Positions 10,417 through 34,008 of a stretch of DNA of 34,174 nt are shown here, piece after piece (the stretch's first letter is position 1; each line of letters opens with the position of its first letter). The DNA is from an uncultured bacterium (GTDB lineage Bacteria > Bacillota_I > Bacilli_A > RF39 > UBA660). A program made the position numbers and the translations under genes. Where the stretch lies: positions 1 through 34,174 of the forward strand of contig CASFOW010000019.1 of assembly GCA_949296705.1 (NCBI GenBank). Direction: 5' to 3'. The notes beneath the pieces are model-generated. The model ran no database searches. It was not told where the DNA came from and saw nothing but the letters and a program-made list of their open reading frames with translations.

Positions 10417-10436
10417 AAGAACCTTTTCAGATTCTT
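10417..10436 (-). terminator. Terminator overlapping the adhesin stop codon
   Basis: Minus strand AAGAATCT, GAAA tetraloop, AGGTTCTT, then TTTTCTTT. It is an 8-bp stem with one G-U pair. The left arm includes the last codons and the TGA (10427-10429) begins the loop region, so the hairpin starts inside the gene. Confidence 0.75.
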
Positions 10437-12877
10437 GTTTGCTTTATTTTTCGATAACCGAGGAAAATTCCTACTATGCTTAAGAAGATTAGCGAAGAAT
10501 GATTCGTTTTGTCTTTGGTAATAGATACTCCTGTTTTTGGAGGTAATTCTATTTTCCGATTAGGAATGGTAATGGTATAGGTTTTCTGATTCTCTACAAT
10601 TTCTAAGTAATGTTCACTTTTATTTATTTCATAGCCTAATGGGGCTTCTTCTTCAACGACATAGTATTTTCCTAAGGGAATATCATAAAAGTAAGCTTTT
10701 CCTTCTTGATCACTATAAACACTACCTAAGTATTCTTTATTTTCGCTATAAAGAGAAAACTTAGCTTTACCGATTTTTACTTTCGTATTAGCATCAATTT
10801 TGATTATTTCAATATCACTTTTCTTTAATGTGTTTTCAAAGGTTAAGGTTAACTTTTGACTATGGGTAGTTAAATCGACAAAGTATTTATGATTATTTTC
10901 ATCATATGGTTCTAAATTTTTAGTTTCGATAACATAATATTTTCCTAAAGGCAGTTTACTACTTCTTGTTAATCCTTCTCGATTAGTGACTAAGATTTCT
11001 ACTAATTGATCTTTTTGGTAAAGAATAGTTCCGTCTTGAGCTTTTATTTCTTCGCTAGCATAAATCGAAAATTCTACTCCTTCTAGGGGCATCATTCGAT
11101 AATACAGTCCCCCTGTTGTCATCATTACTTCACCCTCTTTTTCTATTTCAATTACACCATAGGCTCTTTGATTTTCTACTTCGACAAGAATTACTTTGCC
11201 ATATAATGAATCATTTATTGTTTCCACCTCTTCAGAAATAGTGAACTCGAGTGGTTCTGTTTGTTGTTGATAACCAAAAGGTGCGGATACTTCCTCTAAT
11301 AAGTATGTTCCTGTTAATAGAGGCATATCGGTAATAAAATAACCTTCTTCATTAGTTTCAAATATTGTTGTTTCGGAAGGAATTGGTGTTGTAAGATGAC
11401 GAATAAGATATTCTCCGGTTTCTTTATTTTTTATCTTAAACTTGATCTTAGCTTTGATTGGTAATTGGCTATCGGCATCAAGTTTAACTACTTTTACGCG
11501 GTAACCAATTTCTTCATTCTTTAACGTTATTTTTTGTTCTTTTTCACTTGTTTCACTGATTACCACTTTGAATGGTTTACTTAATTCATAATTATTTTTT
11601 CCTTTTGTCTGAACAATCTGATAAGTCCCGTAAGGTAACTCTATTTCTGCTTTTCCATCTTTATTAGTGATTATTGTTTCTATTCGTTCATTTTTATTGT
11701 TATAGATTTCAAATTCAGCGTTTTCTTCTTCAAAATATTCTTTCTTTTCGCTACTACCATAGAATTTTTGAAGAATGATTTTTCCTTTATAGACTTCGTT
11801 ATCCCAATTCCATACTAGTTTTGGATTACTTTTTTTTATAGATAGATATTTTGGTGTGGAATCTAATTGGTAGCCTATCCCGGCTTTGATTTCTTTAATC
11901 TGGTACTCTCCATAAGGCAATTCTACTATATTTGAGTATCCATCTTCTTGAATGACTAATTGTTTCACTATACTTTTGTCTTGATTAAACAATTCGAAAG
12001 TGGTACCGGTAAAGCTAGCTTCCCCTTGTGGTATACTTCCCGTTTGTTTATCCTGTTTCCTAATTTGAAAGGTACCGGATGGTAATTCTACTTCAATTTC
12101 ACTGGAAATTGGACTGAAACCTCCACGAACGATTAAGCTTTGACTTTCTAAATCGACATATAGTGTTGTTTTACTGTTTGCTTTTTTAGTCAAAATAAGT
12201 TTACTTTTTCCTACGCGCTTAGTGGTTAATCGTAATTCATTTCCCTCCTTTTTTACCGTTAGATGTTCATCTGCTTGAACAGTAAAATTCTCTAGTACTT
12301 GATTGGTATCGGTAAGAACATACTCCTCATTATAAGTAAGGTGATACTTCTGATTCACAAAACTAGGTAGTTGATTATGGTTTTCTACTAATCGTTCTAA
12401 TTCCGCAATTTCTTTTTGATATTTATCTATTCGATTACCATTTAACTTATCAGTAAAATAAATAGTACTATCCGGTTCTAGTGTCTTCCAGATTAAATAT
12501 TGAGTTACTGCATACCAATCCAAGGAAGTATGATTCTGATAGCCATAACCGTAATAGGCTAATAATTCAATTTTCGCCCAGACTTCTTCTGATAGGTTGG
12601 TGTGATTTAGGAAATCTTCTTGGTAACCAATGACTGATTTTCCATCTAGTAATTCTTTCCATATTTCAATACAGTAAGCTACATGATGATCTGAACTTCT
12701 TCTAAACACTCGCATTTGTTGGTATCTTCCTGTATCTGCGCCTGGTTTAAACTTCTTAATATACGCGCCACTCACATACTCTGCCTCATAGAAGCTATCG
12801 GTTAATGCTTTTACTTCTGTTGTTTCTATCAAACTTAATGATAGAAGTAATACTAATAATGTCCATATTTTTTTCAT
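10427..12877 (-). CDS. Wall-anchored thioester adhesin with five Cna_B/SpaA-type domains
   Basis: 816 residues. A signal peptide (MKK, hydrophobic core, likely cut after EVKA near 24) precedes a thioester domain at about 30-150, with Cys69 in YCIEIW and Gln126 in TQYLIW. These are the pair that forms the Cys-Gln thioester used by Gram-positive adhesins to bond covalently to host targets. After a linker, five Cna_B/SpaA-like beta domains follow (about 265-365, 365-460, 460-575, 575-690, 690-775). Each has a (F/Y)-x-(L/I)-(Y/F)-x core and a closing L-P-(Y/L)-G-x-Y-x-(I/V)-x-E segment. The C-terminus is a sortase signal: PPKTG at 779-783 (not strict LPXTG), a hydrophobic span and a basic tail (YRKIKQTRI). 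No sortase is in the window. The ATG follows AGGGGGAAAG. The gene is monocistronic. Confidence 0.9.
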   Translation of the reverse strand: MKKIWTLLVLLLSLSLIETTEVKALTDSFYEAEYVSGAYIKKFKPGADTGRYQQMRVFRRSSDHHVAYCIEIWKELLDGKSVIGYQEDFLNHTNLSEEVWAKIELLAYYGYGYQNHTSLDWYAVTQYLIWKTLEPDSTIYFTDKLNGNRIDKYQKEIAELERLVENHNQLPSFVNQKYHLTYNEEYVLTDTNQVLENFTVQADEHLTVKKEGNELRLTTKRVGKSKLILTKKANSKTTLYVDLESQSLIVRGGFSPISSEIEVELPSGTFQIRKQDKQTGSIPQGEASFTGTTFELFNQDKSIVKQLVIQEDGYSNIVELPYGEYQIKEIKAGIGYQLDSTPKYLSIKKSNPKLVWNWDNEVYKGKIILQKFYGSSEKKEYFEEENAEFEIYNNKNERIETIITNKDGKAEIELPYGTYQIVQTKGKNNYELSKPFKVVISETSEKEQKITLKNEEIGYRVKVVKLDADSQLPIKAKIKFKIKNKETGEYLIRHLTTPIPSETTIFETNEEGYFITDMPLLTGTYLLEEVSAPFGYQQQTEPLEFTISEEVETINDSLYGKVILVEVENQRAYGVIEIEKEGEVMMTTGGLYYRMMPLEGVEFSIYASEEIKAQDGTILYQKDQLVEILVTNREGLTRSSKLPLGKYYVIETKNLEPYDENNHKYFVDLTTHSQKLTLTFENTLKKSDIEIIKIDANTKVKIGKAKFSLYSENKEYLGSVYSDQEGKAYFYDIPLGKYYVVEEEAPLGYEINKSEHYLEIVENQKTYTITIPNRKIELPPKTGVSITKDKTNHSSLIFLSIVGIFLGYRKIKQTRI

Positions 12878-20875: not shown

Positions 20876-21658
20876 TTATAGTTCCTCAGCAAAGCCTTTT
20901 TCTAATTTTCTAAATATACGTAATCCTAGATAGAATAAAATACTAGCGACGACTAATATAATCAATAACATCTGTATATCTGGCATAGTCTGATAATAGA
21001 AAATATCTCTATAGGCATTGATAATAACTGCCATCGGATTAATCTTAATTAACCATTCTACTGCACTACCAGCAAACATATCAGCTGAATATAAAATAGG
21101 AGTTGCGTAAAATAACATGTTTACAAAAAAATTAATGATATATTCTGAATCTCTAACGTATACATCAATTGCACTTGTGATAAAGATAATTGCCTGTTGA
21201 ATAATAAATTGTGTTAATACTATTAATGGGAAGAAGATGATTAACCAACTAAAACCTATACCACTAAATATCAAAAATAAACACATAACTAAACAAGAAA
21301 TTAGAAAATTAATTACTCCACTTAAATTCACGGAAATCGGAAATATTTCACGTGGAAAATAAACTTTTTTTAATATTCCACCATTTCCTAAAATCGTGGT
21401 GGTTCCTTGACTAATTACCGTAGTAAAATAGTTCCAAGGTAAGATTCCAATTACTAGATATGTTACATAGTGTGGTTCAGTATTTTTTAGAATTAATGGG
21501 AACACTATTGCGTAAACTAAAGTCATCAAGAGAGGATTAACAAACGACCAAAGCACTCCTAAAAAAGAACCTTTATATTTTCCTCTTATTTCTTTTTGAA
21601 CATTACTTTTTAATAACTGTCGATATGAATATAAATTATTTATCATTTCTTTTATCAT
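20876..21658 (-). CDS. Polysaccharide ABC exporter, permease (Wzm/TagG/RgpC-type)
   Basis: 260 residues from the ATG at 21656-21658, 1 nt after the ATPase stop; a GTG three codons upstream would overlap. About six hydrophobic spans are present. The N-terminal amphipathic stretch with LLKSNVQKEIRGKYKGSFLG, then LWSFVNPLLMTLVYAIVFPL, is the ABC-2 signature of polysaccharide and teichoic acid exporters. With the ATPase encoded upstream it forms the dimeric channel that moves lipid-linked glycan across the membrane. The ribosome binding site is weak, consistent with coupling to the ATPase gene. Symbol not assigned because the cargo is unknown. Confidence 0.93.
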   Translation of the reverse strand: MIKEMINNLYSYRQLLKSNVQKEIRGKYKGSFLGVLWSFVNPLLMTLVYAIVFPLILKNTEPHYVTYLVIGILPWNYFTTVISQGTTTILGNGGILKKVYFPREIFPISVNLSGVINFLISCLVMCLFLIFSGIGFSWLIIFFPLIVLTQFIIQQAIIFITSAIDVYVRDSEYIINFFVNMLFYATPILYSADMFAGSAVEWLIKINPMAVIINAYRDIFYYQTMPDIQMLLIILVVASILFYLGLRIFRKLEKGFAEEL

Positions 21659-21659
21659 A

Positions 21660-22430
21660 TTATCCACACACCTTCAAGTATTCTTCCACCACTTTATCTG
21701 TTTTTCCATCCATCCTAATTTCCCCATTATAGATCCAAACAGCGCGATCACATAAGTCTTTTATTGAACTAAGGGCATGGCTGACAATTACGATTGTCTT
21801 TCCACTTTTTTTTAGTTCTTGTAATTTGGCAAAGCATTTTTCTTGGAAATGTTGATCGCCGACAGCTAGAATTTCATCAATTAGTAAAATTTCAGCATCT
21901 ACATTTATCGCAACTGAAAAAGCAAGACGCATATACATACCTGATGAATAAGTCCTGACCGGATTATCAATGAAGCTACCAAGCTCAGAAAATTCGATAA
22001 TATCTCCTACTCTTTTATCAATTTCAGCAGCAGTTAATCCAAAGATAGATGCGTTAAAATAAATGTTCTCTCTTCCTGTAAAATCAGGATGGAACCCTGC
22101 TCCTAACTCTAATAAGGAGGTTAGTTTTCCATTAATTATAATTTTTCCACTTGTTGGATAAATGATTTTGGTCATTAACTTTAGCAATGTACTTTTTCCA
22201 CTACCATTAACTCCGATTAAAGCTACTGTCTCACCTGGCTTTATTTTAAGACTCACACCTTTTAACACTTCGTGTTTTCCTACACGGGTTGTTTTTTTAT
22301 TCCAAAATACCAACCTTTCTTTTAAAGTAAATGGTTTATCATAAACTAGTTTAAAACTTTTAGAAACATTTTCTACAATAATTGCATATTTAGTTTTTTG
22401 ATTATTGTTATTTTCCTTCTTTTGAGCCAC
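21660..22430 (-). CDS. Polysaccharide ABC exporter, ATPase (Wzt/TagH/RgpD-type)
   Basis: 256 residues. Walker A GVNGSGKST (73-81), signature YSSGM (161-165), Walker B ILLIDE (181-186), and an H-loop in VIVSHAL. LELGAGFHPDFTGRENI after the Walker A is typical of the glycan-exporter subfamily. At this length it has no C-terminal carbohydrate-binding domain of the kind that gates chain-terminated O-antigens in some Wzt proteins, so substrate selection must rest elsewhere. The start is a GTG with only a weak purine-rich site upstream; no ATG exists near it. It is the first gene of the operon, about 76 nt after the predicted transcription start. Confidence 0.93.
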   Translation of the reverse strand: MAQKKENNNNQKTKYAIIVENVSKSFKLVYDKPFTLKERLVFWNKKTTRVGKHEVLKGVSLKIKPGETVALIGVNGSGKSTLLKLMTKIIYPTSGKIIINGKLTSLLELGAGFHPDFTGRENIYFNASIFGLTAAEIDKRVGDIIEFSELGSFIDNPVRTYSSGMYMRLAFSVAINVDAEILLIDEILAVGDQHFQEKCFAKLQELKKSGKTIVIVSHALSSIKDLCDRAVWIYNGEIRMDGKTDKVVEEYLKVCG

Positions 22431-22512
22431 ATTATCACGCTTCTTTCTATTGATAGTATCACTTTGAAAAACAGTTTAATTTTACCTTAACTATATTTCT
22501 AGTACAATAAGT

Positions 22513-22541
22513 ATTATAACAAATCTTTAGGTGTATATCAA
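22513..22541 (-). promoter_or_regulatory. Strong promoter of the ABC-exporter glycan operon
   Basis: Minus strand TTGATA (22536-22541), 17 bases, TATAAT (22513-22518), with TG one base before the -10 box (extended -10). This separates the downstream operon transcriptionally from the one upstream. Confidence 0.85.
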
Positions 22542-22780
22542 ATAGTAATCAGTTACAGAGAAGTAATAAAAATTCTGGATTTTTATATAAATTTATCAAT
22601 TATTTTAATTATCTACGAAATAATAGATTATAGTATACTTTCTTGTGTTAAACATATTTATATTTCATATTTAAGGACTATTGATATAATCAAAAATATA
22701 AATGCTTCACAAAATAAAATATCATTAATATTCAACTTTAATCATTATGACATTCTTTTCTTCTTAATTATTTCAGAAAA

Positions 22781-22808
22781 AAACCTCTAGAAAAAAATCT
22801 AGGGGTTT
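22781..22808 (-). terminator. Rho-independent terminator between the two glycan operons
   Basis: Minus strand AAACCCCTAGA, a 6-nt T loop, TCTAGAGGTTT followed by a run of T ending TTTTCTG. The 11-bp stem has a single G-U pair. It lies about 300 nt after the aminotransferase stop and 240 nt before the next promoter. Confidence 0.85.
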
Positions 22809-22819
22809 ATCTACACTCT

Positions 22820-22846
22820 GAAGAATCATCATTTTGATGATTCTTC
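22820..22846 (-). repeat. Perfect 12-bp inverted repeat upstream of the terminator
   Basis: GAAGAATCATCA (22820-22831), 3-base loop, TGATGATTCTTC (22835-22846). It lacks a T-run, so it is not itself a terminator. It lies 11 bases before the terminator hairpin on the minus strand and may be a stabilising or regulatory stem-loop. Confidence 0.75.
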
Positions 22847-22929
22847 GTGCAACTTAAAACAACCATTTATTATCGCCTATAAGGCATTGTTTTTTTATTA
22901 ATTATATGTTTTTTTATTGTAATTAACCA

Positions 22930-23052
22930 CTATATTAATATCTTTTGCATATCTTCTAATATATTTTTTCCATTACTAATTCTCTGACAGCTTATTCTCA
23001 CTTTAATTCTTCTTGTTTCGTTATTGATGCATATAAATCCATCTGCAAAATT
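22930..23052 (-). other. Open 41-codon stretch without a start codon, possible gene remnant
   Basis: The minus strand is open from 23052 to a TAG at 22930-22932 and reads like real protein (ADGFICINNETRRIKVRI, then ISNGKNILEDMQKILI), but has no usable start and a stop directly upstream. It may be the eroded end of a small gene. The rest of the 22431-23105 spacer not listed elsewhere (22542-22772 and 23053-23105) is AT-rich and I see nothing in it. Confidence 0.25.
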
Positions 23053-23105
23053 TTACACTTACTTTTTTATTTTTTTATATTAATAGCTTAATTTAATATG
23101 AATTA

Positions 23106-24227: not shown

Positions 24228-24658
24228 TATTTCTTCACCCCATACTTTTTCTCATTATGTTTTAAAAACTCATCATAATCTCTTATATAATCATTTTCAT
24301 CATATTGTTCTGAAGCTAAAACTAATAATACGCCATCATCCTTAAAATTAAACATTTCGCGCCAATTATCAGGGCCAATATATAAACCAACTGATGGGTC
24401 ATTTAAAGTATAAACTTGTTCGCCTAAGAAATTTTCAACCCTAATATCAATGCTACCGTGTACACAAATCAGCACTTGATGAAGTCTTTCATGTGCATGC
24501 TTTCCGCGTATTACACTATCATTTACGTCATATATATAATAAATTCTTTTAATATCAAAAGGTATTTCTACTCCTCCCTCAATAGGGGTTAATGCTCCAA
24601 TTTCTGATTTAGAAGGAGAGGTTATCTTTCTAAATTTTAACATTCCGCAATTAAACAT
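24227..24658 (-). CDS. dTDP-4-oxo-6-deoxyhexose 3,4-ketoisomerase, QdtA/FdtA-type cupin
   Basis: 143 residues from the ATG at 24656-24658, which overlaps the upstream stop by 8 nt and has AAGGAtgg about 7-11 bases before it; an ATG five codons later (24643) is an alternative. The cupin reads [20 protein letters not shown], then [14 protein letters not shown], the metal/active-site region [20 protein letters not shown] (His pair in KHAHxxxHQ), and [16 protein letters not shown]. This is the WxcM-like C-terminal/QdtA-FdtA family, which moves the keto group from C4 to C3 before transamination. Its one-base overlap with the aminotransferase gene fits that pathway. Confidence 0.9.
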
Positions 24659-26549
24659 TCTTTTTACCATCCTTTGCTTTGAATTCTTCAAATAACTTAT
24701 CAATTCTATTCATGATTATAATACTAGGTTTTTCGTCCATTTTTATAGGTTCTTTAGTATATTTCTTATAGTTTTTATAAAAATATTTTATATTATCAAA
24801 GTCATTATTAAATGGTAAAGCGTTCCAACCTAGCCCTTCCGTTTTAACTTCGACCTTTGTTCTCATAATAAGATAGGGCTTTCCCATATAGAAAAATTCT
24901 TGTTGATTACCGCATCCATCTCCGATTATAAATTCGCAATGTTTGATGATATTTATAAAATTGATATAATCTTGTCTTCCTATAATGGTGATATCCTTAT
25001 TTTTCATAATTTTATCCCATAGTCCTAACTTTTCTAAAGTGAATTTTGTTTGTTCATGATAGATAAAAATACAATGCATCTTATTTGATAGATTATCTAC
25101 TTCATTGATAGTATTTTTCATAAAAGAGTTATTTAATAAATTTTCTTGTCGATGAATTGCAAATACAAAATATTTTCCTTTATAAGGGCTTTTTAATTTT
25201 TGCTTTTTGCATTGCTCTAAAGCATAATATAATATCTCTATTCCAGTGTTATAGTGGGTATTTATTGCTTCCGCTTTAAAATACTTTTCAGCATATTCAG
25301 TCGCGATATCACTTTGGCAAAAATTTAAAATAGAATGCTTTGAGGAAAGGTATCTATCAATCTCTTCAGGAAATGGAGAAAACCAATTTAAAGATCTAAT
25401 TCCACTTTCTATGTGAACGTATCTAAGTTTTACCTTTCTTGCTATCATGCTTCCCATTAAGGTAGACATAGTATCACCATGAACCACCATAATACTATTA
25501 TCAAAATCAAATCTTAATTTTTGCTTTTTAAATACTTTTATACCTAACTTTCTTGTCTTGATGAACCATTTTAAATAGCTACTAATTCCCTTTTTCTTTG
25601 GAGCATATTTTGTTAAATCAACATCTACTTTTTTGTTGATTAAATTTAAGTACGGGCTATCATTGATAATATTTTGTCCATTTGAAACAATAATAGCATT
25701 ATATCCTCTTTTTATGGATTCGGCAATAACATTGTACATTTTCATTACTTCAGCCTCAGTGCCTAAAAAATAATATAGATTTTTTTGTTTTCCTAATTTG
25801 GCTTCTAACATTTTATCATACTGCTTTTTTATTTTTAACTTGTAAAATATTTTTATAGTATCACCGAACATTTTAGTAATATCCTTCAATTTGATTCTTC
25901 CCATTGCATGCTCTCTGGTAAAATTCAATTCAATAGGTGCATCAACGATTTTATAACCTAGTCTATTAATAAGTGACAATACTTCGATATCAAAAGAAAA
26001 TCCCTCTATTTCTGCTATTTCCATGGCTTTTTTTACTGCTTCTTTTTTAAATAGTTTTAATCCAGTTTGAGTGTCTTTAACTTTTAAATTAAATAATATT
26101 TTTAAAAGTAAATAATAACAAAAGCTTAAAATTTTTCTTTTTAGAGGATAATTGATAATGGAATCTTTATGCATCTTAGAGGCAATAACTACATCGGCAT
26201 TCTCTTTATCCATTATTGCAATATACTTCTTTATATATGATGGTGGTAGTTCTAAATCGCAATCAATAAATACAACTAACTCACCTTTTGCCTTCTCTGT
26301 TCCTACTTTTAACGCATGGCCCTTTCCTTTATTTTTATCATAACTGATTATTTTTACTTTTTTATCTTTTTTACTTGCTTTTGCTAACTCTTTTTTCGTA
26401 TTATCTTTACTACCGTCATTTATACAAATAATTTCGTAATTATCATAAAATTCCGAGATTATTTTAGACATTTTTAATATGTTCTTATATACTTTTTCTT
26501 CTTCATTATAGCATGGTACTATAACTGATAATAATCTTTGTTTTTCCAT
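24651..26549 (-). CDS. Fusion: GT2 glycosyltransferase + UDP-GlcNAc 2-epimerase (WecB)-like domain
   Basis: 632 residues. Residues 1-240 are a DPM1-like GT2: VIVPCYNEEEKVYKNIL, INDGSKDNT (44-51) and FIDCDLELPP (95-103), with no membrane spans. From 257 a WecB-like GT-B fold begins (YYFLGTEAEVMKMYNVI). Equivalents of WecB catalytic residues are present: D359 in HGDT, E381 in HIESGIRS, E395/E396 in FPEEIDR, and H466 in IHRQEN. The UDP-binding loop DSGGIQEE is altered to DGCGNQQE (544-551), so substrate or activity may differ; a glycosyltransferase using this fold is possible. There is no stop or frameshift between the parts, so the fusion is real in this sequence. It overlaps the flippase gene by one base (TAATG). 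Confidence 0.88.
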   Translation of the reverse strand: MEKQRLLSVIVPCYNEEEKVYKNILKMSKIISEFYDNYEIICINDGSKDNTKKELAKASKKDKKVKIISYDKNKGKGHALKVGTEKAKGELVVFIDCDLELPPSYIKKYIAIMDKENADVVIASKMHKDSIINYPLKRKILSFCYYLLLKILFNLKVKDTQTGLKLFKKEAVKKAMEIAEIEGFSFDIEVLSLINRLGYKIVDAPIELNFTREHAMGRIKLKDITKMFGDTIKIFYKLKIKKQYDKMLEAKLGKQKNLYYFLGTEAEVMKMYNVIAESIKRGYNAIIVSNGQNIINDSPYLNLINKKVDVDLTKYAPKKKGISSYLKWFIKTRKLGIKVFKKQKLRFDFDNSIMVVHGDTMSTLMGSMIARKVKLRYVHIESGIRSLNWFSPFPEEIDRYLSSKHSILNFCQSDIATEYAEKYFKAEAINTHYNTGIEILYYALEQCKKQKLKSPYKGKYFVFAIHRQENLLNNSFMKNTINEVDNLSNKMHCIFIYHEQTKFTLEKLGLWDKIMKNKDITIIGRQDYINFINIIKHCEFIIGDGCGNQQEFFYMGKPYLIMRTKVEVKTEGLGWNALPFNNDFDNIKYFYKNYKKYTKEPIKMDEKPSIIIMNRIDKLFEEFKAKDGKKNV

Positions 26550-27805
26550 TATTTACTACCCCCTAATTTTTTGTTTTTTATTGCTAAAAGGTTTATGATA
26601 AATATAAATATGTTGATTAGAAAAATTATTATTAATGATGCATATTTATAGCGATTTATAGCAATTAGAATAATTGTTGCCAATATACTTCCTATTACTA
26701 AAGTTTTCTTCATAAATTTTACTTTATTGATTCCTGTTAGGTAATTTAATAATATTAGATTCAGACTATATGATAAGGAAATTAAACTTGCATATTTTAA
26801 ATATATAATGGCCGGATCATATTTACTACCAAACACAATATTTAAAATGCCTTTTCCAAAAACATTAGTTGGAATCAAGAAAATTAATGTCAGAATAATA
26901 GTATATGTTAATGTTTTATATAACATTTTGTCAACGTATTTTGAATCTTTTCTATTTCTTGAAATTAATGGTAACATTACTGTTACAAGTGCTGTAACAA
27001 AGTAATATATCATTTTTCCAAATACAAGTACTGAACTATATAATCCTATTGTTTCAGAATCATAAAAACAAGTTAAATATAAAATATCGATGTTCATTAG
27101 AAACATTATCAAAATATTCGCATAAAATACATTTTTATATTCTTGCCATATATATCGAACTTTTCTATTGCTTTTTTTTATTTCCTTAACATTCTTTCTA
27201 GTTATGATGTAGCCCACTATTAAAGAAATAATATTTCCTAAAATGATGGATAATAATATAGAGTATACTTCAGAGAGACCATCTATATTCAATAAAACGA
27301 TTAAGATCAAACTGAATATCTTAATTACAGGTATAATTAAAGTATACAAACCTAAACTGACAAATTTACCTAATCCACCAAATATTCCTTGATATACAAT
27401 AGGATAAATGCTAGTTACCAAACTTATTATTGCCAAGACAACAATTAAATAATTCCAATTTAAGAAATGAGCAAATAAAGGACTAATGATTATGCTTGCT
27501 AAAAATAAGATTATACATACGATGTTAACTACTGATAAAATCTTATAGCATAAGCCAGCACCTGATTTACGATTTTCTGAAATTACTTTTGATAAAATCA
27601 TAGAAGCAGTACTGCCAATCACACTAACAATAATCGTCAATGAAAAGATTGTATTCACAATACCATAATTACTTACTGAAAAAAATCTTCCCATTAGTAT
27701 TTGACACAAATAATTTAGTGCGCTACCAAAAGTAGTCAAAATAAAAACGATTAAACTATTTTTTGCTAATATATTACTATTTTGGTTATGATTATTTATT
27801 TTCAT
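26549..27805 (-). CDS. Wzx-type polysaccharide flippase (MOP superfamily)
   Basis: 418 residues, about twelve hydrophobic spans, typical length. The first span pair with LNYLCQILMGRFFSVSNYGI and NTIFSLTIIVSVIGSTASMI is the usual start of RfbX/Wzx proteins (small residues, then xFG/YG after span one). The C-terminal half continues with polar-poor helices and ends in a Lys-rich tail. It would flip a lipid-linked glycan unit to the outer face. It is the only flippase in this operon and sits downstream of a large membrane protein that could polymerise or ligate the product. A GAGGT ribosome binding site precedes the ATG. The specific unit flipped is unknown. Confidence 0.9.
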   Translation of the reverse strand: MKINNHNQNSNILAKNSLIVFILTTFGSALNYLCQILMGRFFSVSNYGIVNTIFSLTIIVSVIGSTASMILSKVISENRKSGAGLCYKILSVVNIVCIILFLASIIISPLFAHFLNWNYLIVVLAIISLVTSIYPIVYQGIFGGLGKFVSLGLYTLIIPVIKIFSLILIVLLNIDGLSEVYSILLSIILGNIISLIVGYIITRKNVKEIKKSNRKVRYIWQEYKNVFYANILIMFLMNIDILYLTCFYDSETIGLYSSVLVFGKMIYYFVTALVTVMLPLISRNRKDSKYVDKMLYKTLTYTIILTLIFLIPTNVFGKGILNIVFGSKYDPAIIYLKYASLISLSYSLNLILLNYLTGINKVKFMKKTLVIGSILATIILIAINRYKYASLIIIFLINIFIFIINLLAIKNKKLGGSK

Positions 27806-27857: not shown

Positions 27858-29645
27858 CTAATCTATATATAATTCGAAGTGGTCAGTTATCACTTGATCG
27901 TCTATTCCATTATTATAATAAGAATCAACAATATAATAGCCTTTTTTTGCTTCTATCGAGTAATCCTCATTTAACCAATCTGTATCAATAATTGTTTCTA
28001 GTGTATTATAACTATCCCCGTAGTTAATTTTTAATTTTATTTTTTCATCTTTATCTACATCTGTTTTGAATACTATTTTATCGTTTTCGATGCACACTTG
28101 TTTTAAAGCTGATATATTATGATTATAAAACAATACTTTAGTTCTTCTGTCTAATTGGTATGCTTCTAAAAACACGTCATAGTGAACTGTTTCTTGTGAA
28201 ATAGCGCCTGTTCTAAACATGTCATTTGCTTCATATATCGGTATAGCTATATAGCAAGAATAATCAAATTCATTCATTTCTTGCTTTTCTAGAGTTGTTT
28301 GCAATATTCTATCTCTTTTTTCAGTTACATCATTGATTCTTCTACCGAGTAAAATTGTATGATCTAGTGCAATTATAAATAATGTTATTATTATTCCTTT
28401 TATTAGGCGGAAGTCATTTAATTCATAAAAGTATATCACGGATATAATTACTAATGCAAAGAAACCAATAGACGATATTCTTGCCCCGGTATTAGGTGTT
28501 ATTAACATTGGTAATAAACACAATATACCTATCCCAAAAACATATAATGATAACTCTTTGTTTTCTACTTTAAAAATTGAAAATATAATCACTGGAAGCA
28601 TAACTAGTATACTTATTATAATAGGGATTATTTCAGCACTGTAATAGGTTGGTGGAAAAAGAGTATTAATAAATTCCAATGATGAAAAAAAGAAAGTTTT
28701 ATAAATCATGGCAACTAAAAATATTCCTGATATTACAGAAGAAATTGTCCCCATTATATAATCTATATGTTTTTTCTTTTTTTTAGTAAATATTATAAAT
28801 GCAATTAGAAGAAAAAGAATAAAAAATAAATGAGTATTCTGAGAAACTATATCTACATATATTGATTTTATATTATTAGCTAGAGTTTCAATTAATGGAC
28901 TAGAACTTACGATTTCCCTATTATTTTTTAATCCTGGAGATAGCATCATCAACAAAAATCCAGCAATAGCAAATATATTTGGTATCAATAATTTAAATCT
29001 ATTTTTGTTTTTCTTTATAAACTGAATAATAGTTATTAGTGAAATAACTGCTGCAAATCCAAACGAAATATGTTCCATCCACATTCCGATAGAAAAACTT
29101 ATTACCGACATTAATATTAGTATTTTTTTTCCTTTAAACTTATCATCTATTACTTTCTGTAATAGGTAATAGTAAATTAGGAAAAATGGTATTGGCACAA
29201 TATAAGCAGAATTAGCATAAAATAAAACTTCTGTTCTCATTGGCGGACTAACTAATAGAATTAATCCAGAAAATAAGAGAAGCCCAAAAAAGAATTTTTT
29301 CTGATCTCCATTTTTCTTTTTGCATATTAAATATATAAAAATATACATTATTAAAATACAAAGCGCATTAAAAAAATCTAAAGGAATCTCAGAGGTAAAA
29401 GACTCTAATATGCCGCATATAAAATTAGAGACTAATCTGCCATTCGTATAAAAATAACATTCAAAAATTAAATAATAAATATAATTTATTATTCCACCAG
29501 TCGATGGGTAAGTAAATTTACTAGCCCAACCATCATAAGTCATTGGTACTATTCTATATAGGACAAAGAAAATAAAAAAGCATAATAAGGAAGAAAAAAT
29601 AAGCAATTTATTTTTTTTTAAAAGTTTTTTATTTATCTTAAACAT
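27858..29645 (-). CDS. Large multi-spanning membrane protein, DUF6056/GT-C-like, with C-terminal soluble domain
   Basis: 595 residues. One span at about 13-31, then the loop MTYDGWASKFTYPSTGG with FYTNGRLVSNFICGIL. An acidic residue in the first outer loop and an NGR motif before the next helix recall DUF6056 and related GT-C-like families; I am moderately sure of this. About ten spans follow to residue 440. The last 140 residues are hydrophilic and rich in Asp/Lys/Tyr, probably outside the cell. Given a flippase next to it and no other Wzy candidate in the operon, it may polymerise, ligate or decorate the glycan. That is inference. GAGG lies about 10 nt before the ATG. Confidence 0.75.
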   Translation of the reverse strand: MFKINKKLLKKNKLLIFSSLLCFFIFFVLYRIVPMTYDGWASKFTYPSTGGIINYIYYLIFECYFYTNGRLVSNFICGILESFTSEIPLDFFNALCILIMYIFIYLICKKKNGDQKKFFFGLLLFSGLILLVSPPMRTEVLFYANSAYIVPIPFFLIYYYLLQKVIDDKFKGKKILILMSVISFSIGMWMEHISFGFAAVISLITIIQFIKKNKNRFKLLIPNIFAIAGFLLMMLSPGLKNNREIVSSSPLIETLANNIKSIYVDIVSQNTHLFFILFLLIAFIIFTKKKKKHIDYIMGTISSVISGIFLVAMIYKTFFFSSLEFINTLFPPTYYSAEIIPIIISILVMLPVIIFSIFKVENKELSLYVFGIGILCLLPMLITPNTGARISSIGFFALVIISVIYFYELNDFRLIKGIIITLFIIALDHTILLGRRINDVTEKRDRILQTTLEKQEMNEFDYSCYIAIPIYEANDMFRTGAISQETVHYDVFLEAYQLDRRTKVLFYNHNISALKQVCIENDKIVFKTDVDKDEKIKLKINYGDSYNTLETIIDTDWLNEDYSIEAKKGYYIVDSYYNNGIDDQVITDHFELYID

Positions 29646-29714: not shown

Positions 29715-30842
29715 TTATCCTTCTCTGTGCTTTAAAAATTTTCTTATTTTTAATGGTACTATTCTTCTAAAAAGGGTTCTTAATGGTGAAGCGTTAGATG
29801 AATTTTCATCACCCTTACTAGGCCTTAAAGTTCCATTCATTAAATAATCTAAATGTTCATTACTGAGAGAAAATGGATTGGTATCAATTGTGTCATAAAA
29901 TTTTTTGTTTCTATATTCGATTCTAATGTTTCTATCAATCTTCTGACCATTAAAATATCTATCATATGTCCACTGATAATTTCCTATTTCTTGTTGGCCA
30001 TATTCATTCATCTCTTTAATATACTCGTTTCTCAACTTATAAATATAATTTTTTTTATCAGGTACGTAGTAATCAAAAACCGTCTGATTTGCCCCGCTAT
30101 CAAAACCAGAATAATGAAAAAATACTAATTCATATTTTTCATTTACTAAAATTTTGTTATTTTTGTAGCTTATTTTTCTAGTTGATAAGTTCCATGGTGC
30201 CATATTATAACCTGGATTTTTCATAATATAAACGTCAAAATAGGCTGGCGCTAAATCGCACCATCTTTGATCTGTAAAAATTCCTCTTGGAATATCATCA
30301 TAGCAATATAGTGAAAGCCTATTGTTCCACCAGTTTGCAAATTTCATCCCTTCTTCATCATTTTTTACTCCAACAAATCCTAAGTTATATACACCGTGTT
30401 GGAGTGCACACAACTCATTATTATTAATATCAATTTCATTTTTTTCTGGTATTGTCAAATGTGGAGTTAGAATAATAGAATGCTTGTCTAAAATATCCGA
30501 TAACTCTTTTAAAGATGAATAAATTTTTATGTCTGGATCAATATATAGGACTTTATCATCATAATTTTGTAGTAAATGTACCAATGCTTGTCCTTTCACG
30601 GAAGTTGAAGCTTCTACTATTGAATGTTTAAAAATAAACTTATCAAAATCTTCAAAGCCTAAATCTTTTGCTAAGATCACTTTATCCACAATTTTGTTTG
30701 CTTCTTTAGGCCATTCTTTTGGTATCTCTCTCTCTAACAATATTATAAAAAATTTAACATTTTTGTTTGTGTTTTTTAATGATTTGCCTAGTGTTAATGC
30801 TTTAGGTAAATAATTCATGCATATAGATGTGAATACTAACAT
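29715..30842 (-). CDS. GT-A-type glycosyltransferase with DPD motif (GT8-like)
   Basis: 375 residues, no membrane span. The N-terminus (MLVFTSICMNYLPKALTLGK) and VKGQALVHLLQNYDDKVLYI leading to DPDIKIYSSL give the Rossmann-like GT-A layout with a DPD in place of DxD as metal-binding motif. Further blocks are ILTPHLTIPEK, QHGVYNLGFVGVKNDEEG, WWNNRLSLYC, FTDQRWCDLAPAYF and the late FFHYSGFDSG. This set is typical of a bacterial glycosyltransferase group distantly like GT8 that occurs in capsule loci. The C-terminal 130 residues are variable and end strongly basic, perhaps for membrane contact. It lies 5 nt after the fusion gene's stop, with GGAG before its ATG. Donor unknown. Confidence 0.82.
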   Translation of the reverse strand: MLVFTSICMNYLPKALTLGKSLKNTNKNVKFFIILLEREIPKEWPKEANKIVDKVILAKDLGFEDFDKFIFKHSIVEASTSVKGQALVHLLQNYDDKVLYIDPDIKIYSSLKELSDILDKHSIILTPHLTIPEKNEIDINNNELCALQHGVYNLGFVGVKNDEEGMKFANWWNNRLSLYCYDDIPRGIFTDQRWCDLAPAYFDVYIMKNPGYNMAPWNLSTRKISYKNNKILVNEKYELVFFHYSGFDSGANQTVFDYYVPDKKNYIYKLRNEYIKEMNEYGQQEIGNYQWTYDRYFNGQKIDRNIRIEYRNKKFYDTIDTNPFSLSNEHLDYLMNGTLRPSKGDENSSNASPLRTLFRRIVPLKIRKFLKHREG

Positions 30843-30847
30843 TTTCT

Positions 30848-33181
30848 CTACTCCGTTCTTTTTATTTTATATTTTATTTTTAATTTTCTCAAAAACTTAT
30901 TTATTAGATCATCATTTTTATCTGTTCCTTCAGGAACAATACAATCGTATAGTTTTTCGATAGAAATAATCATTTCTTTTAATTGAGGTACTTCTGCCAA
31001 TTGTAAATTTTTTATGTATTTATTATAATTTTGCTTTTTTAAAATTTCTTTAATTGCACTAATTATTTTTTTATAATCCGAATTGCTATCTAATACTATT
31101 CCAACATCCATTTCTTTTACTCTGTTTCCTATTGCACCAACATCTAATGCAATGACAGGAACTTTTGCGTATACAGTTTCGCTCAAAACATAACTAAACG
31201 TTTCTGGACAAATCGAAAGCATTAGTACTACATCAATATGATTATCATTTAATAATTTAGGCAATTGTTTCTTTTTATATTCACCATGATATATATAATT
31301 TTTATAATTTTTTAAAAAAAACTTATCATTTGATGTTCCAAATAAATGATACATGATGTTTTCGTCGTTATTTTTTATTATTTGTTTGGCTAAATGTGAG
31401 CCTTTATGTATATTTAAACCACCTATAAAAGCAATATTTTTAATTTTTTTAGGAATTTTGTCACAGTAATCAAATTTAGAAAATGTTGATGGTTCAATTC
31501 CATTTGGAACGATAATAAACTTATCATAATTATAGTACTTTTTTACTTCTGTTATCACGCTGGCGTCTGGGACTGTTATTTTATCAACTGATTTTAGTAA
31601 ATTATTCACTGCGTTATTCCTTGTTTCTATATATATACCCCGTGAGCATTTTAAACATTTCTTGGTTCCAGCTTCCTGACAATATTTTTTTTCTTGATCA
31701 ATTAAAAAGTAATTCGGACATAGAATTGTATAATCATGCAATGTTAAAATGACTCTAGTTTTCTTCGAAATGTATTGCAAATCACACGGAAAATTAATTA
31801 TATGCTGGATATGAACAAGATCAATCTGCAAGGTATCAATAAGATTGTTGATCATATACAAAAATTCATAATGATAGCAGTCATATCTATATATTTTCAC
31901 TTGAAGTCCAAGGCTGTGGATTATTTGTTCTCCGTTTTCAAAGGTAATTAAAACATATTCATTATCAATAGCAGTTAATATATATATATTATATTTATCT
32001 TTTAAGTGGCTAACAAGTTCCAACACATGCAAAGTTGTCCCACCAATATGAGTATTATTAGGGTTATTTATATCTACCCATGACTGCACTACATATAATA
32101 TTGACTTTTCATAAATTGAGTGATTATTTTTTTCAGCATTACTTTTTTTTACTTTTTTCATCACTTGTCTTGCTGGCACAGTTATCTTCCAAGAACTACT
32201 ATTATAAATTAGATCAAGTTGCTTTTGTAAACTAGTACTATTTTTCTTTAAGGTTTCATTTTGATTTTTCAGTAATTCAACTTTTTCTTTTAATTCTTGA
32301 ATTTCCAACTGAGATTCATCTATTTTTTTCTGATTAATTAGTAATTCATCATTAATTGTTTTGGTAATATTTACTCTATTTTCTAATAAAATCCTTTCAA
32401 GATTAATTGCTTCAGCTTGCTGATCAATTTTTGTTAGCTTAAAAATATTTTGCAACACCAGCAACTGTTCATTTTTTGATATTATTTCACTTAAACATTT
32501 GTAGTCTTCATAAAACTCAGGTTTGATTATGGTTCTACCTATTACTTCTAAATCAAATTTACAGTTGGTTAAACCTTCATCATCATTTAAAGTTTTTATA
32601 TATTCAGCAAAAGAGTATTTTGTAAAAAAGCGAAGATGTGTATTATCTAGTATTCCCATTTCGGAATAGTTGAATTTTTCGTTCAATAGCCCATCAATAA
32701 CATCATAGTGAGCAATGTTAGGCAAGCTGATAAGTATAGAGCCTTTTGGGGTTAGTTTTTTTGAAAATTCATATAGTATTTCATCTGGGAATAATAAATG
32801 TTCTAATACGTCTGAAAACAAAATATAGTCGAATGTTATGTTTGTACTAAAAAATTCTTGATAAATTTTACTCTTTTTATCTGATATATCAAAATTATAT
32901 ATTTCTTGATAATAGTTTGTCTTTTTAGCAATTTTAATTGCTTCTTCATCTATTTCAATCCCATATATTTTACAATTAGACTTATGAATTGCTTCGCCAA
33001 TTATTCCTTGAGCGCATCCTATATCTAATACTGTAGCACCAGGCTTAATATTACTTGCAATTATTGCATGCGACTCATTTGTATCATTTAGCAAAACTTT
33101 AAAGGTTGAATCGTAATATTTATTTTTTTTATTCAAATGCAACTTGTTCGTTTTGTCATTTGCTATTATGCCAATTGCCAT
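30848..33181 (-). CDS. Fusion: SAM-dependent methyltransferase, coiled coil and GT4 glycosyltransferase
   Basis: 777 residues, three parts. Residues about 20-225 are a class I methyltransferase: SAM motif LDIGCAQGIIGEAI (52-65), acidic GIEIDEEAI (74-82) and FSDVLEHLLFPDE (122-133). Residues about 255-325 are a heptad-rich Leu/Lys/Glu coiled coil. A SSSWKITVPAR element (328-338), common before GT modules in polysaccharide loci, leads to a GT4 module (about 360-745). That module has HIGGTTLHVLELVSHL, four clustered Cys (CPNYFLIDQEKKYCQEAG, then KKCLKC) and E-x7-E in PETFSYVLSE. Methyltransferase plus coiled coil recalls the chain-terminating, chain-measuring WbdD-type proteins of O-antigen systems, although WbdD lacks this GT and has a kinase. 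Ribosome binding site GGAGG. Same operon as the acetyltransferase 28 nt upstream. Confidence 0.88.
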   Translation of the reverse strand: MAIGIIANDKTNKLHLNKKNKYYDSTFKVLLNDTNESHAIIASNIKPGATVLDIGCAQGIIGEAIHKSNCKIYGIEIDEEAIKIAKKTNYYQEIYNFDISDKKSKIYQEFFSTNITFDYILFSDVLEHLLFPDEILYEFSKKLTPKGSILISLPNIAHYDVIDGLLNEKFNYSEMGILDNTHLRFFTKYSFAEYIKTLNDDEGLTNCKFDLEVIGRTIIKPEFYEDYKCLSEIISKNEQLLVLQNIFKLTKIDQQAEAINLERILLENRVNITKTINDELLINQKKIDESQLEIQELKEKVELLKNQNETLKKNSTSLQKQLDLIYNSSSWKITVPARQVMKKVKKSNAEKNNHSIYEKSILYVVQSWVDINNPNNTHIGGTTLHVLELVSHLKDKYNIYILTAIDNEYVLITFENGEQIIHSLGLQVKIYRYDCYHYEFLYMINNLIDTLQIDLVHIQHIINFPCDLQYISKKTRVILTLHDYTILCPNYFLIDQEKKYCQEAGTKKCLKCSRGIYIETRNNAVNNLLKSVDKITVPDASVITEVKKYYNYDKFIIVPNGIEPSTFSKFDYCDKIPKKIKNIAFIGGLNIHKGSHLAKQIIKNNDENIMYHLFGTSNDKFFLKNYKNYIYHGEYKKKQLPKLLNDNHIDVVLMLSICPETFSYVLSETVYAKVPVIALDVGAIGNRVKEMDVGIVLDSNSDYKKIISAIKEILKKQNYNKYIKNLQLAEVPQLKEMIISIEKLYDCIVPEGTDKNDDLINKFLRKLKIKYKIKRTE

Positions 33182-33209
33182 TTTTACCTCCGCTATTGTA
33201 ACTATGATT

Positions 33210-33950
33210 TTATAATTTTTTTTGTTTTTCTTTAGATTCCACCTGCCAAGGATATCCCCTAAAATCTTTTAAATAGTCTGGCCATGGGTAAACTCTATTT
33301 TCATCATTGTCTAGAATTTCTTCTACCTGACATCTATACTTAGCAGGGTGTCCCATTACCACACAATGCGGAGCAACATCCTTACTAACTAATGCATCTG
33401 CTACTACCAAGGCATGCTTACCTACTGTAACACCGGGCAAAATAACTGCGCCGGCCGCAACTATTGCACATTCTTCAATAGTCACTCCTTCTAACTTATT
33501 AAGAGGTGGATAAGTATCGTTTGTAACTACTACATGTGGAAATATCCAAACATAATTTTTAATAGTTGTTAGTGGGGCGATGAACACATTTGAATGTATT
33601 CGTACAAAATCTCCTATACAAACAGTTCCTTGTATGTCACTTAAAGTTCCAACCGAGCAATTTTTTCCAATATGACTGTCTTCTCGAATAGTAACATGAT
33701 GCCCAGTCTGAAAATTTTCTCCAATATTTACGTCTTCATAAATAATTGAATGTGATCGAATAATAGAATTAGCTCCTATTTCAGTTTTCTTAAATTCATG
33801 ATGTTCAGGATCTTGATAATATGAAGAGGTTGGCTCCCCTATAATACAATATGGTCCTATAAAAACATTGTCATGTAATACTACATTAGGATAAATCAAT
33901 GCTGTTGGATGTATTTTTACGTTTTTTCCTTTTATTATATCTTCTCCCAT
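33210..33950 (-). CDS. Hexapeptide-repeat (left-handed beta helix) sugar N-acetyltransferase
   Basis: 246 residues. From residue 10 onward, imperfect hexapeptide turns of the (L/I/V)-G-x4 type run to about 200: IHPTALIYPNVVLHDNVFIG, IGANSIIRSHSIIYEDVNIG, VTIREDSHIGKNCSVGTLSD, IVAAGAVILPGVTVGKHALV. VVMGHPAKYRCQV then closes the helix as usual. The tail (YPWPDYLKDFRGYPWQ) is not part of the repeat. The catalytic His is probably the one in TGHHVTIRE or IRSHSI. Given the ketoisomerase and aminotransferase in the same operon, it probably acetylates the 3-amino group of the dTDP-sugar (FdtC/QdtC role); another acylation target is possible. First gene of the operon; AGGAGGG lies 4 bases before the ATG. 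Confidence 0.85.
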   Translation of the reverse strand: MGEDIIKGKNVKIHPTALIYPNVVLHDNVFIGPYCIIGEPTSSYYQDPEHHEFKKTEIGANSIIRSHSIIYEDVNIGENFQTGHHVTIREDSHIGKNCSVGTLSDIQGTVCIGDFVRIHSNVFIAPLTTIKNYVWIFPHVVVTNDTYPPLNKLEGVTIEECAIVAAGAVILPGVTVGKHALVVADALVSKDVAPHCVVMGHPAKYRCQVEEILDNDENRVYPWPDYLKDFRGYPWQVESKEKQKKL

Positions 33951-33979: not shown

Positions 33980-34008
33980 ATTATATATAATTTTGCTTGT
34001 TCTCTCAA
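33980..34008 (-). promoter_or_regulatory. Strong promoter of the Wzx/aminosugar operon
   Basis: Minus strand TTGAGA (34003-34008), 17 bases, TATAAT (33980-33985). Ten of twelve consensus positions match. It lies about 30 nt before the acetyltransferase start and defines the 5' end of the roughly 11-kb operon. Confidence 0.85.

What the first reader, a model, noticed from the sequence alone, without database searches (positions are those of the whole stretch)
30848..33181. Methyltransferase-coiled coil-GT4 fusion: possible chain terminator with built-in ruler
The order methyltransferase, 70-residue coiled coil, glycosyltransferase recalls WbdD-type proteins that cap O-antigen and measure its length with a coiled coil. 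WbdD uses a kinase and a separate polymerase, so an all-in-one capping GT in a Gram-positive-type locus with a Wzx partner would be new. The neighbouring ABC ATPase lacks the cap-recognising domain, which argues that the cap, if made, does not gate that exporter.
Basis: partly seen in the sequence, partly recalled or inferred. Interest (0 to 1): 0.65.

Follow-up and report, generated by a model that had tools for sequence, protein, structure and literature searches.

The report
Methyltransferase, coiled-coil stalk, sugar-transferase fusion
An uncultured gut bacterium of the Bacilli carries one protein that joins a methyl-adding enzyme, by a short coiled-coil stalk and a membrane-sticking helix, to a sugar-adding enzyme; it looks like a new variant of the known capping enzymes of surface sugar chains, but that it measures chain length is unproven.

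Summary
The described protein is real: 30848-33181(-), 777 aa, good ribosome site, methyltransferase (MT), coiled coil, GT4 in that order. The coiled coil is about 55 residues (about 8 nm), not 70, and is followed by a basic amphipathic helix beginning NSSSWK. Relatives explain the build. In the same bacterial family MT-coiled coil-tail occurs as a complete stand-alone protein, ending where the GT4 begins here, usually near a Wzm/Wzt ABC exporter and twice directly before a gene carrying a relative of this GT4. A second genus has the same fusion (45% identity). MTs with a coiled coil lie near Wzt far more often than those without (13/18 v 3/61). The best reading is a WsaE/Klebsiella-O7-type module: a methylating chain-end enzyme held on a membrane-anchored stalk and tied to a glycosyltransferase. 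The ruler is undecided: the stalk is short, spacers vary 51-97 residues, the relative's coiled coil is weak, and the tail also ends GTs without an MT. New variant of a known kind.

The parts
30848..33181 (-). MT-coiled coil-GT4 fusion protein, 777 aa
32429..33076 (-). class I SAM methyltransferase domain, residues about 36-251
   Evidence: Pfam Methyltransf_23/31; AlphaFold2; nearest solved structure 3cc8, Foldseek E 2.3e-15
32207..32371 (-). coiled-coil helix, residues 271-325 (COILS-type 273-329)
32129..32200 (-). tail helix, residues 328-351 (motif NSSSWKITVPAR at 327-338), basic and amphipathic; corresponds to the end of the stand-alone MT-coiled coil proteins
   Evidence: helix in the model; hydrophobic moment 0.56, shuffle p 0.022, net charge +6; shared motif
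30941..32113 (-). GT4 (GT-B) glycosyltransferase domain, residues about 357-747, with four conserved Cys and E-x7-E
33187..33191 (-). Shine-Dalgarno GGAGG of the fusion gene
29715..30842 (-). GT8-like glycosyltransferase, conserved partner gene (71% and 61% identical in the two other loci)
33210..33950 (-). hexapeptide acyltransferase, first gene of the putative operon
26549..27805 (-). Wzx-type flippase of the same putative operon
   Evidence: Polysacc_synt_3, E 3.1e-13
27858..29645 (-). DUF6056 polytopic membrane protein; GT-C-type role assumed
   Evidence: the role is inference
21660..22430 (-). Wzt ATPase without cap-binding C-terminal domain
20876..21667 (-). Wzm permease
   Evidence: ABC2_membrane, E 4.9e-17
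33980..34008 (-). promoter-like site before the fusion's putative operon (11 of 12)
   Evidence: consensus match only
22513..22541 (-). promoter-like site before wzt (11 of 12)
   Evidence: consensus match only

Best explanation
It is a stalk-tethered two-enzyme module of cell-surface glycan synthesis, of the WsaE/Klebsiella-O7 type. The N-terminal methyltransferase adds a methyl group to the free end of a membrane-lipid-linked glycan. The coiled coil makes the protein an oligomer and holds the methyltransferase a few nm from the membrane. The NSSSWK tail helix lies on the inner membrane face, and the GT4 beyond it adds a sugar of the same glycan near the membrane. Methylation would stop growth of that chain before export by the neighbouring Wzm/Wzt or, for a side chain, Wzx. 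Shown: domain order, intact motifs, coiled coil, amphipathic tail, gene fusion, association of the MT-coiled coil unit with Wzm/Wzt. Inferred: sugar substrate, terminal rather than internal methylation, oligomerisation, membrane contact. Not shown: length control.
For: Anatomy. A terminating enzyme on the far side of the coiled coil from the GT modules is the published layout (PMC11231755). Stand-alone MT-coiled coil-tail proteins in the same family end 17-24 residues after the tail motif starts, where the GT4 begins here, and stand directly before a GT2-GT4 gene in L016 and L017, a gene-fusion argument for joint action. All 8 close Bacilli-type loci with enough flank have Wzm/Wzt within about 7 kb. 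Over all fetched loci Wzt lies near 13 of 18 MTs followed by a coiled coil and 3 of 61 without, Fisher p 1.5e-8. MT-additional domain-coiled coil-SxxW-GT2(-GT2) proteins occur in Deltaproteobacteria and Clostridia (L035, L043, L047), and in two of these loci and in Enterococcus the MT-coiled coil gene adjoins a Wzt with Wzt_C.
Against: No Wzt_C domain found in this genome, so a cap could not gate export in the known way. The fusion's putative operon has its own promoter-like site and a Wzx; wzt starts after a 676-base gap. A GT4 of this kind without MT or coiled coil sits before the same GT8 gene in L095, so the MT is dispensable to that pair. In the only full-length relative the coiled coil is weak (none at window 28). 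The Wzt association counts loci, several of them close relatives, not independent events. [quoted passage not shown]
Confidence: 0.45

Rival explanations
1. Docking, not ruling: coiled coil plus tail is a general oligomerising and membrane-docking module of these loci, and the MT merely decorates sugars (internal or side-chain methylation) without setting length.
For: The NSxxWK-type tail ends 7 GT2-GT4 enzymes without MT and, after a coiled coil, a further MT-less enzyme in L008; spacer length varies 51-97 residues between relatives; in L100 the MT-coiled coil carries a different N-terminal domain.
Against: MTs with a coiled coil associate with Wzt far more than MTs without; in the characterised Klebsiella systems the coiled-coil protein carries the terminator (PMC11231755). 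WbdD-type rulers also anchor and recruit, so docking and ruling are not exclusive.
Confidence: 0.35
2. The enzyme works on a Wzx-flipped lipid-linked side-chain sugar or short oligosaccharide, not on the ABC-exported polymer.
For: The putative operon 33950-23106 holds Wzx, a GT2/epimerase fusion, FdtA, a DegT-type aminotransferase, an acyltransferase and a polytopic DUF6056 protein, with separate promoter-like sites and a 676-base gap before wzt.
Against: In L010 the same fusion lies about 4.5 kb downstream of wzt-wzm on the same strand, and stand-alone MT-coiled coil genes directly precede wzt in L012, L013, L014 and L018.
Confidence: 0.25
3. One reading: the GT4 itself adds a capping sugar, which the MT then methylates, with the coiled coil as ruler.
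For: Order of domains.
Against: In the WsaE and O7 analogues the fused GTs build the chain and the methyl or methylphosphate is the cap (PMC2943079, PMC11231755); the GT4's relatives are GT2-GT4 enzymes, several next to wzm.
Confidence: 0.1

Closest known systems
WsaE of Geobacillus stearothermophilus NRS 2004/3a (S-layer glycan)
   Same: N-terminal MT fused to GT modules; Gram-positive; locus with wzm/wzt; chain-end O-methylation (PMC2943079)
   Different: Two rhamnosyltransferase domains instead of one GT4; a coiled coil is not mentioned for it in the passages read; sequence not compared here
ORF6 of Klebsiella pneumoniae O7
   Same: MT, coiled coil, GT modules in one chain, terminator far from the GTs (PMC11231755)
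   Different: Has a kinase and a CBM and two GT2 modules; Gram-negative O antigen
WbdD of E. coli O8/O9a
   Same: MT plus coiled coil plus membrane-binding C-terminal region; acts with an ABC exporter (PMC3482155, PMC5082667)
   Different: O9a form has a kinase; polymerase separate; stalk about 20 nm against about 8 nm here; there export requires the cap, whereas no Wzt_C was found in this genome
WbbB of Klebsiella O12
   Same: Terminator and GT polymerase in one chain with a coiled coil (PMC11231755)
   Different: Caps with Kdo by a GT, not by methylation
MT-coiled coil-tail stand-alone proteins of the same family of Bacilli (L011-L014, L018, L097, L104)
   Same: Homologous MT, coiled coil and tail (about 35-43% identity)
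   Different: No GT4

Membership tests
Coiled-coil glycan chain terminators (WsaE / O7-ORF6 type) | catalytic terminator-type domain, coiled coil, then GT module(s) in one chain | tested here: met
Coiled-coil glycan chain terminators (WsaE / O7-ORF6 type) | encoded in an ABC-transporter-dependent glycan locus | tested here: met
   wzm/wzt in the window and in all 8 close loci with enough flank; here in a separate putative operon
Coiled-coil glycan chain terminators (WsaE / O7-ORF6 type) | modifies the non-reducing end and stops the chain | not testable with these tools
   biochemistry needed
Coiled-coil glycan chain terminators (WsaE / O7-ORF6 type) | coiled-coil length sets glycan length | not testable with these tools
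   spacer varies 51-97 residues among relatives; glycan sizes unknown
Coiled-coil glycan chain terminators (WsaE / O7-ORF6 type) | amphipathic helix next to the coiled coil | tested here: met
   helix 328-351; moment 0.56, p 0.022; membrane contact itself not shown
WbdD (O9a) | kinase domain next to the MT | tested here: not met
   no kinase family in Pfam or NCBIfam
WbdD (O9a) | stalk of about 20 nm | tested here: not met
   55-residue helix, about 8 nm against about 200 A (PMC5082667)
Cap-gated ABC export | Wzt with C-terminal cap-binding domain | tested here: not met
   256-aa Wzt without Wzt_C; no Wzt_C match in the genome, 95% complete
GT4 glycosyltransferases | GT-B fold and E-x7-E | tested here: met
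Class I SAM methyltransferases (Methyltransf_23) | SAM motif I and acidic motif II | tested here: met
   D53-x-G55-x3-G59 and E76

The most novel reading that the evidence does not exclude
A lineage of Bacilli that kept coiled-coil methyl terminators but lost cap recognition: exporter (Wzt without Wzt_C) and terminator (no additional domain between MT and coiled coil) both lack the putative glycan-binding parts that distant relatives have (Enterococcus, L035, L043), so that termination and export are coupled by physical tethering, as in this MT-stalk-GT4 fusion, instead of by reading the cap.
Probability: 0.15. Interest if true: 0.6.

Novelty: new variant of a known kind. Interest (0 to 1): 0.35.

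Why it matters
It extends methyltransferase-coiled coil terminator-like proteins to reduced-genome gut Bacilli and to GT4 partners, and gives a natural series (MT-stalk alone, MT-stalk-GT4, GT4 without MT, MT-extra domain-stalk with cap-reading Wzt) with which the open question of how termination is coupled to export without a cap-reading exporter could be tested. The single protein is otherwise what a specialist would expect from WsaE and O7 ORF6.

Tried and rejected
Kinase or WbdD membership: no kinase domain, and no WbdD entry among the 60 best of 88 PDB sequence matches to the MT profile. Assembly chimera: rejected, same junction in a second genus. First AlphaFold alignment A3 misplaced the GT4 fragments onto the MT and was replaced by A4. 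A longer coiled coil in MT proteins than in other proteins with the tail was not supported: 9 against 3 values, p 0.29 (one of the three is a cut piece of an MT protein). A search of 395 genomes of the class at E 1e-40 found only the window's own. The model of the Enterococcus protein is weak (mean pLDDT 64) and was not searched further.

Full report
Observation. The ORF at 30848-33181(-) is 777 aa, has GGAGG five bases before its ATG, and holds, in order, a class I methyltransferase, a coiled coil and a GT4. It occurs once in the genome. COILS-type scoring gives residues 273-329, above all 500 shuffles of the same stretch (the score table was entered from memory, so the shuffles and the comparison with other window ORFs are the safeguard). 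AlphaFold2 gives helix 271-325 and a second helix 328-351, with confident MT and GT-B domains but only moderate confidence in the stalk (64-78), and no reliable domain arrangement, pTM 0.55. Foldseek's best MT match is 3cc8, of unknown function, and the GT matches are GT4 enzymes such as BshA, PimA and WaaG. So the coiled coil is real but about 55 residues.

Relatives. The MT-coiled coil-tail part exists as stand-alone proteins of 320-390 aa in the same family, and in one case, L015, in a contig labelled Saccharibacteria. They stop 17-24 residues after the tail motif starts; the window protein and L010 go on for 451-453 residues with the GT4. In L016 and L017 the stand-alone gene is directly followed by a GT2-GT4 gene whose GT4 is a relative of this one. 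The two fusions group together in a GT4 tree (95/99 support). In L095 a GT4 without MT precedes the same GT8-like gene (61% identical to the window's). A search of 386 genomes of the family gave matches in 16, the fusion in two, and the listed same-genus genomes lack it: it is an accessory gene.

Known architectures. MT-additional domain-coiled coil-SxxW-GT2 proteins occur in L035 and L043, and with two GT2 modules in L047, a Clostridia contig. WsaE and Klebsiella O7 ORF6 are characterised examples of MT plus GT in one chain (PMC2943079, PMC11231755). Whether WsaE is homologous was not tested, as its sequence was not at hand.

Exporter. MTs followed by a coiled coil lie near a Wzt-like ATPase in 13 of 18 loci, others in 3 of 61 (the grouping was made by hand, and related loci are not independent). 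Two types emerge. In Enterococcus, L035 and L043 the Wzt has Wzt_C and the MT-coiled coil protein has an additional domain of about 120 residues before the coiled coil, beta-rich in a weak model of the Enterococcus protein. In the window's family Wzt is 241-256 aa without Wzt_C, and that additional domain is absent. The number of independent cases is small.

Tail. The NSxxWK helix is basic and amphipathic in 8 of 10 cases tested at p<0.05, and a tail of this type also ends all 7 GT2-GT4 proteins listed. It is therefore a shared docking or membrane element and not by itself a mark of a terminator.

Mechanism. Best reading: methyl-capping enzyme on a membrane-anchored oligomeric stalk, tied to a GT of the same glycan. 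[quoted passage not shown] Whether the substrate is the ABC polymer or a Wzx-flipped side chain is also open, because the gene lies in a putative operon with Wzx, separated from wzt by 676 bases.

Noticed in passing
L055, L070, L074 (Enterococcus ratti, E. durans, Enterococcus sp.): An MT-extra domain-coiled coil-second beta domain protein overlaps the end of a wzt gene with Wzt_C, which suggests a cap-gated, methyl-terminated polysaccharide in enterococci.
   Followed up: partly
L100:808-2472(+): MT-coiled coil-tail fused behind a different N-terminal domain (start MKILVYTVLASQYDNLYEI; glycosyltransferase-like by eye, not searched), next to Wzm.
   Followed up: no
window 24651-26549(-): GT2 fused to a UDP-GlcNAc 2-epimerase domain in one ORF.
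   Followed up: no
window 22431-23105: Stretch of about 676 bases without a convincing ORF between the aminotransferase gene and wzt, with a strong promoter-like site near wzt.
   Followed up: partly
window 10427-12877(-): Surface protein with thioester domain and five SpaA-type domains, ending in a sortase-like PKTG motif.
   Followed up: no
window 31649-31723, GT4 residues 487-511: Four conserved cysteines (C487, C500, C508, C511) in the GT4 subfamily, possibly a metal site.
   Followed up: no
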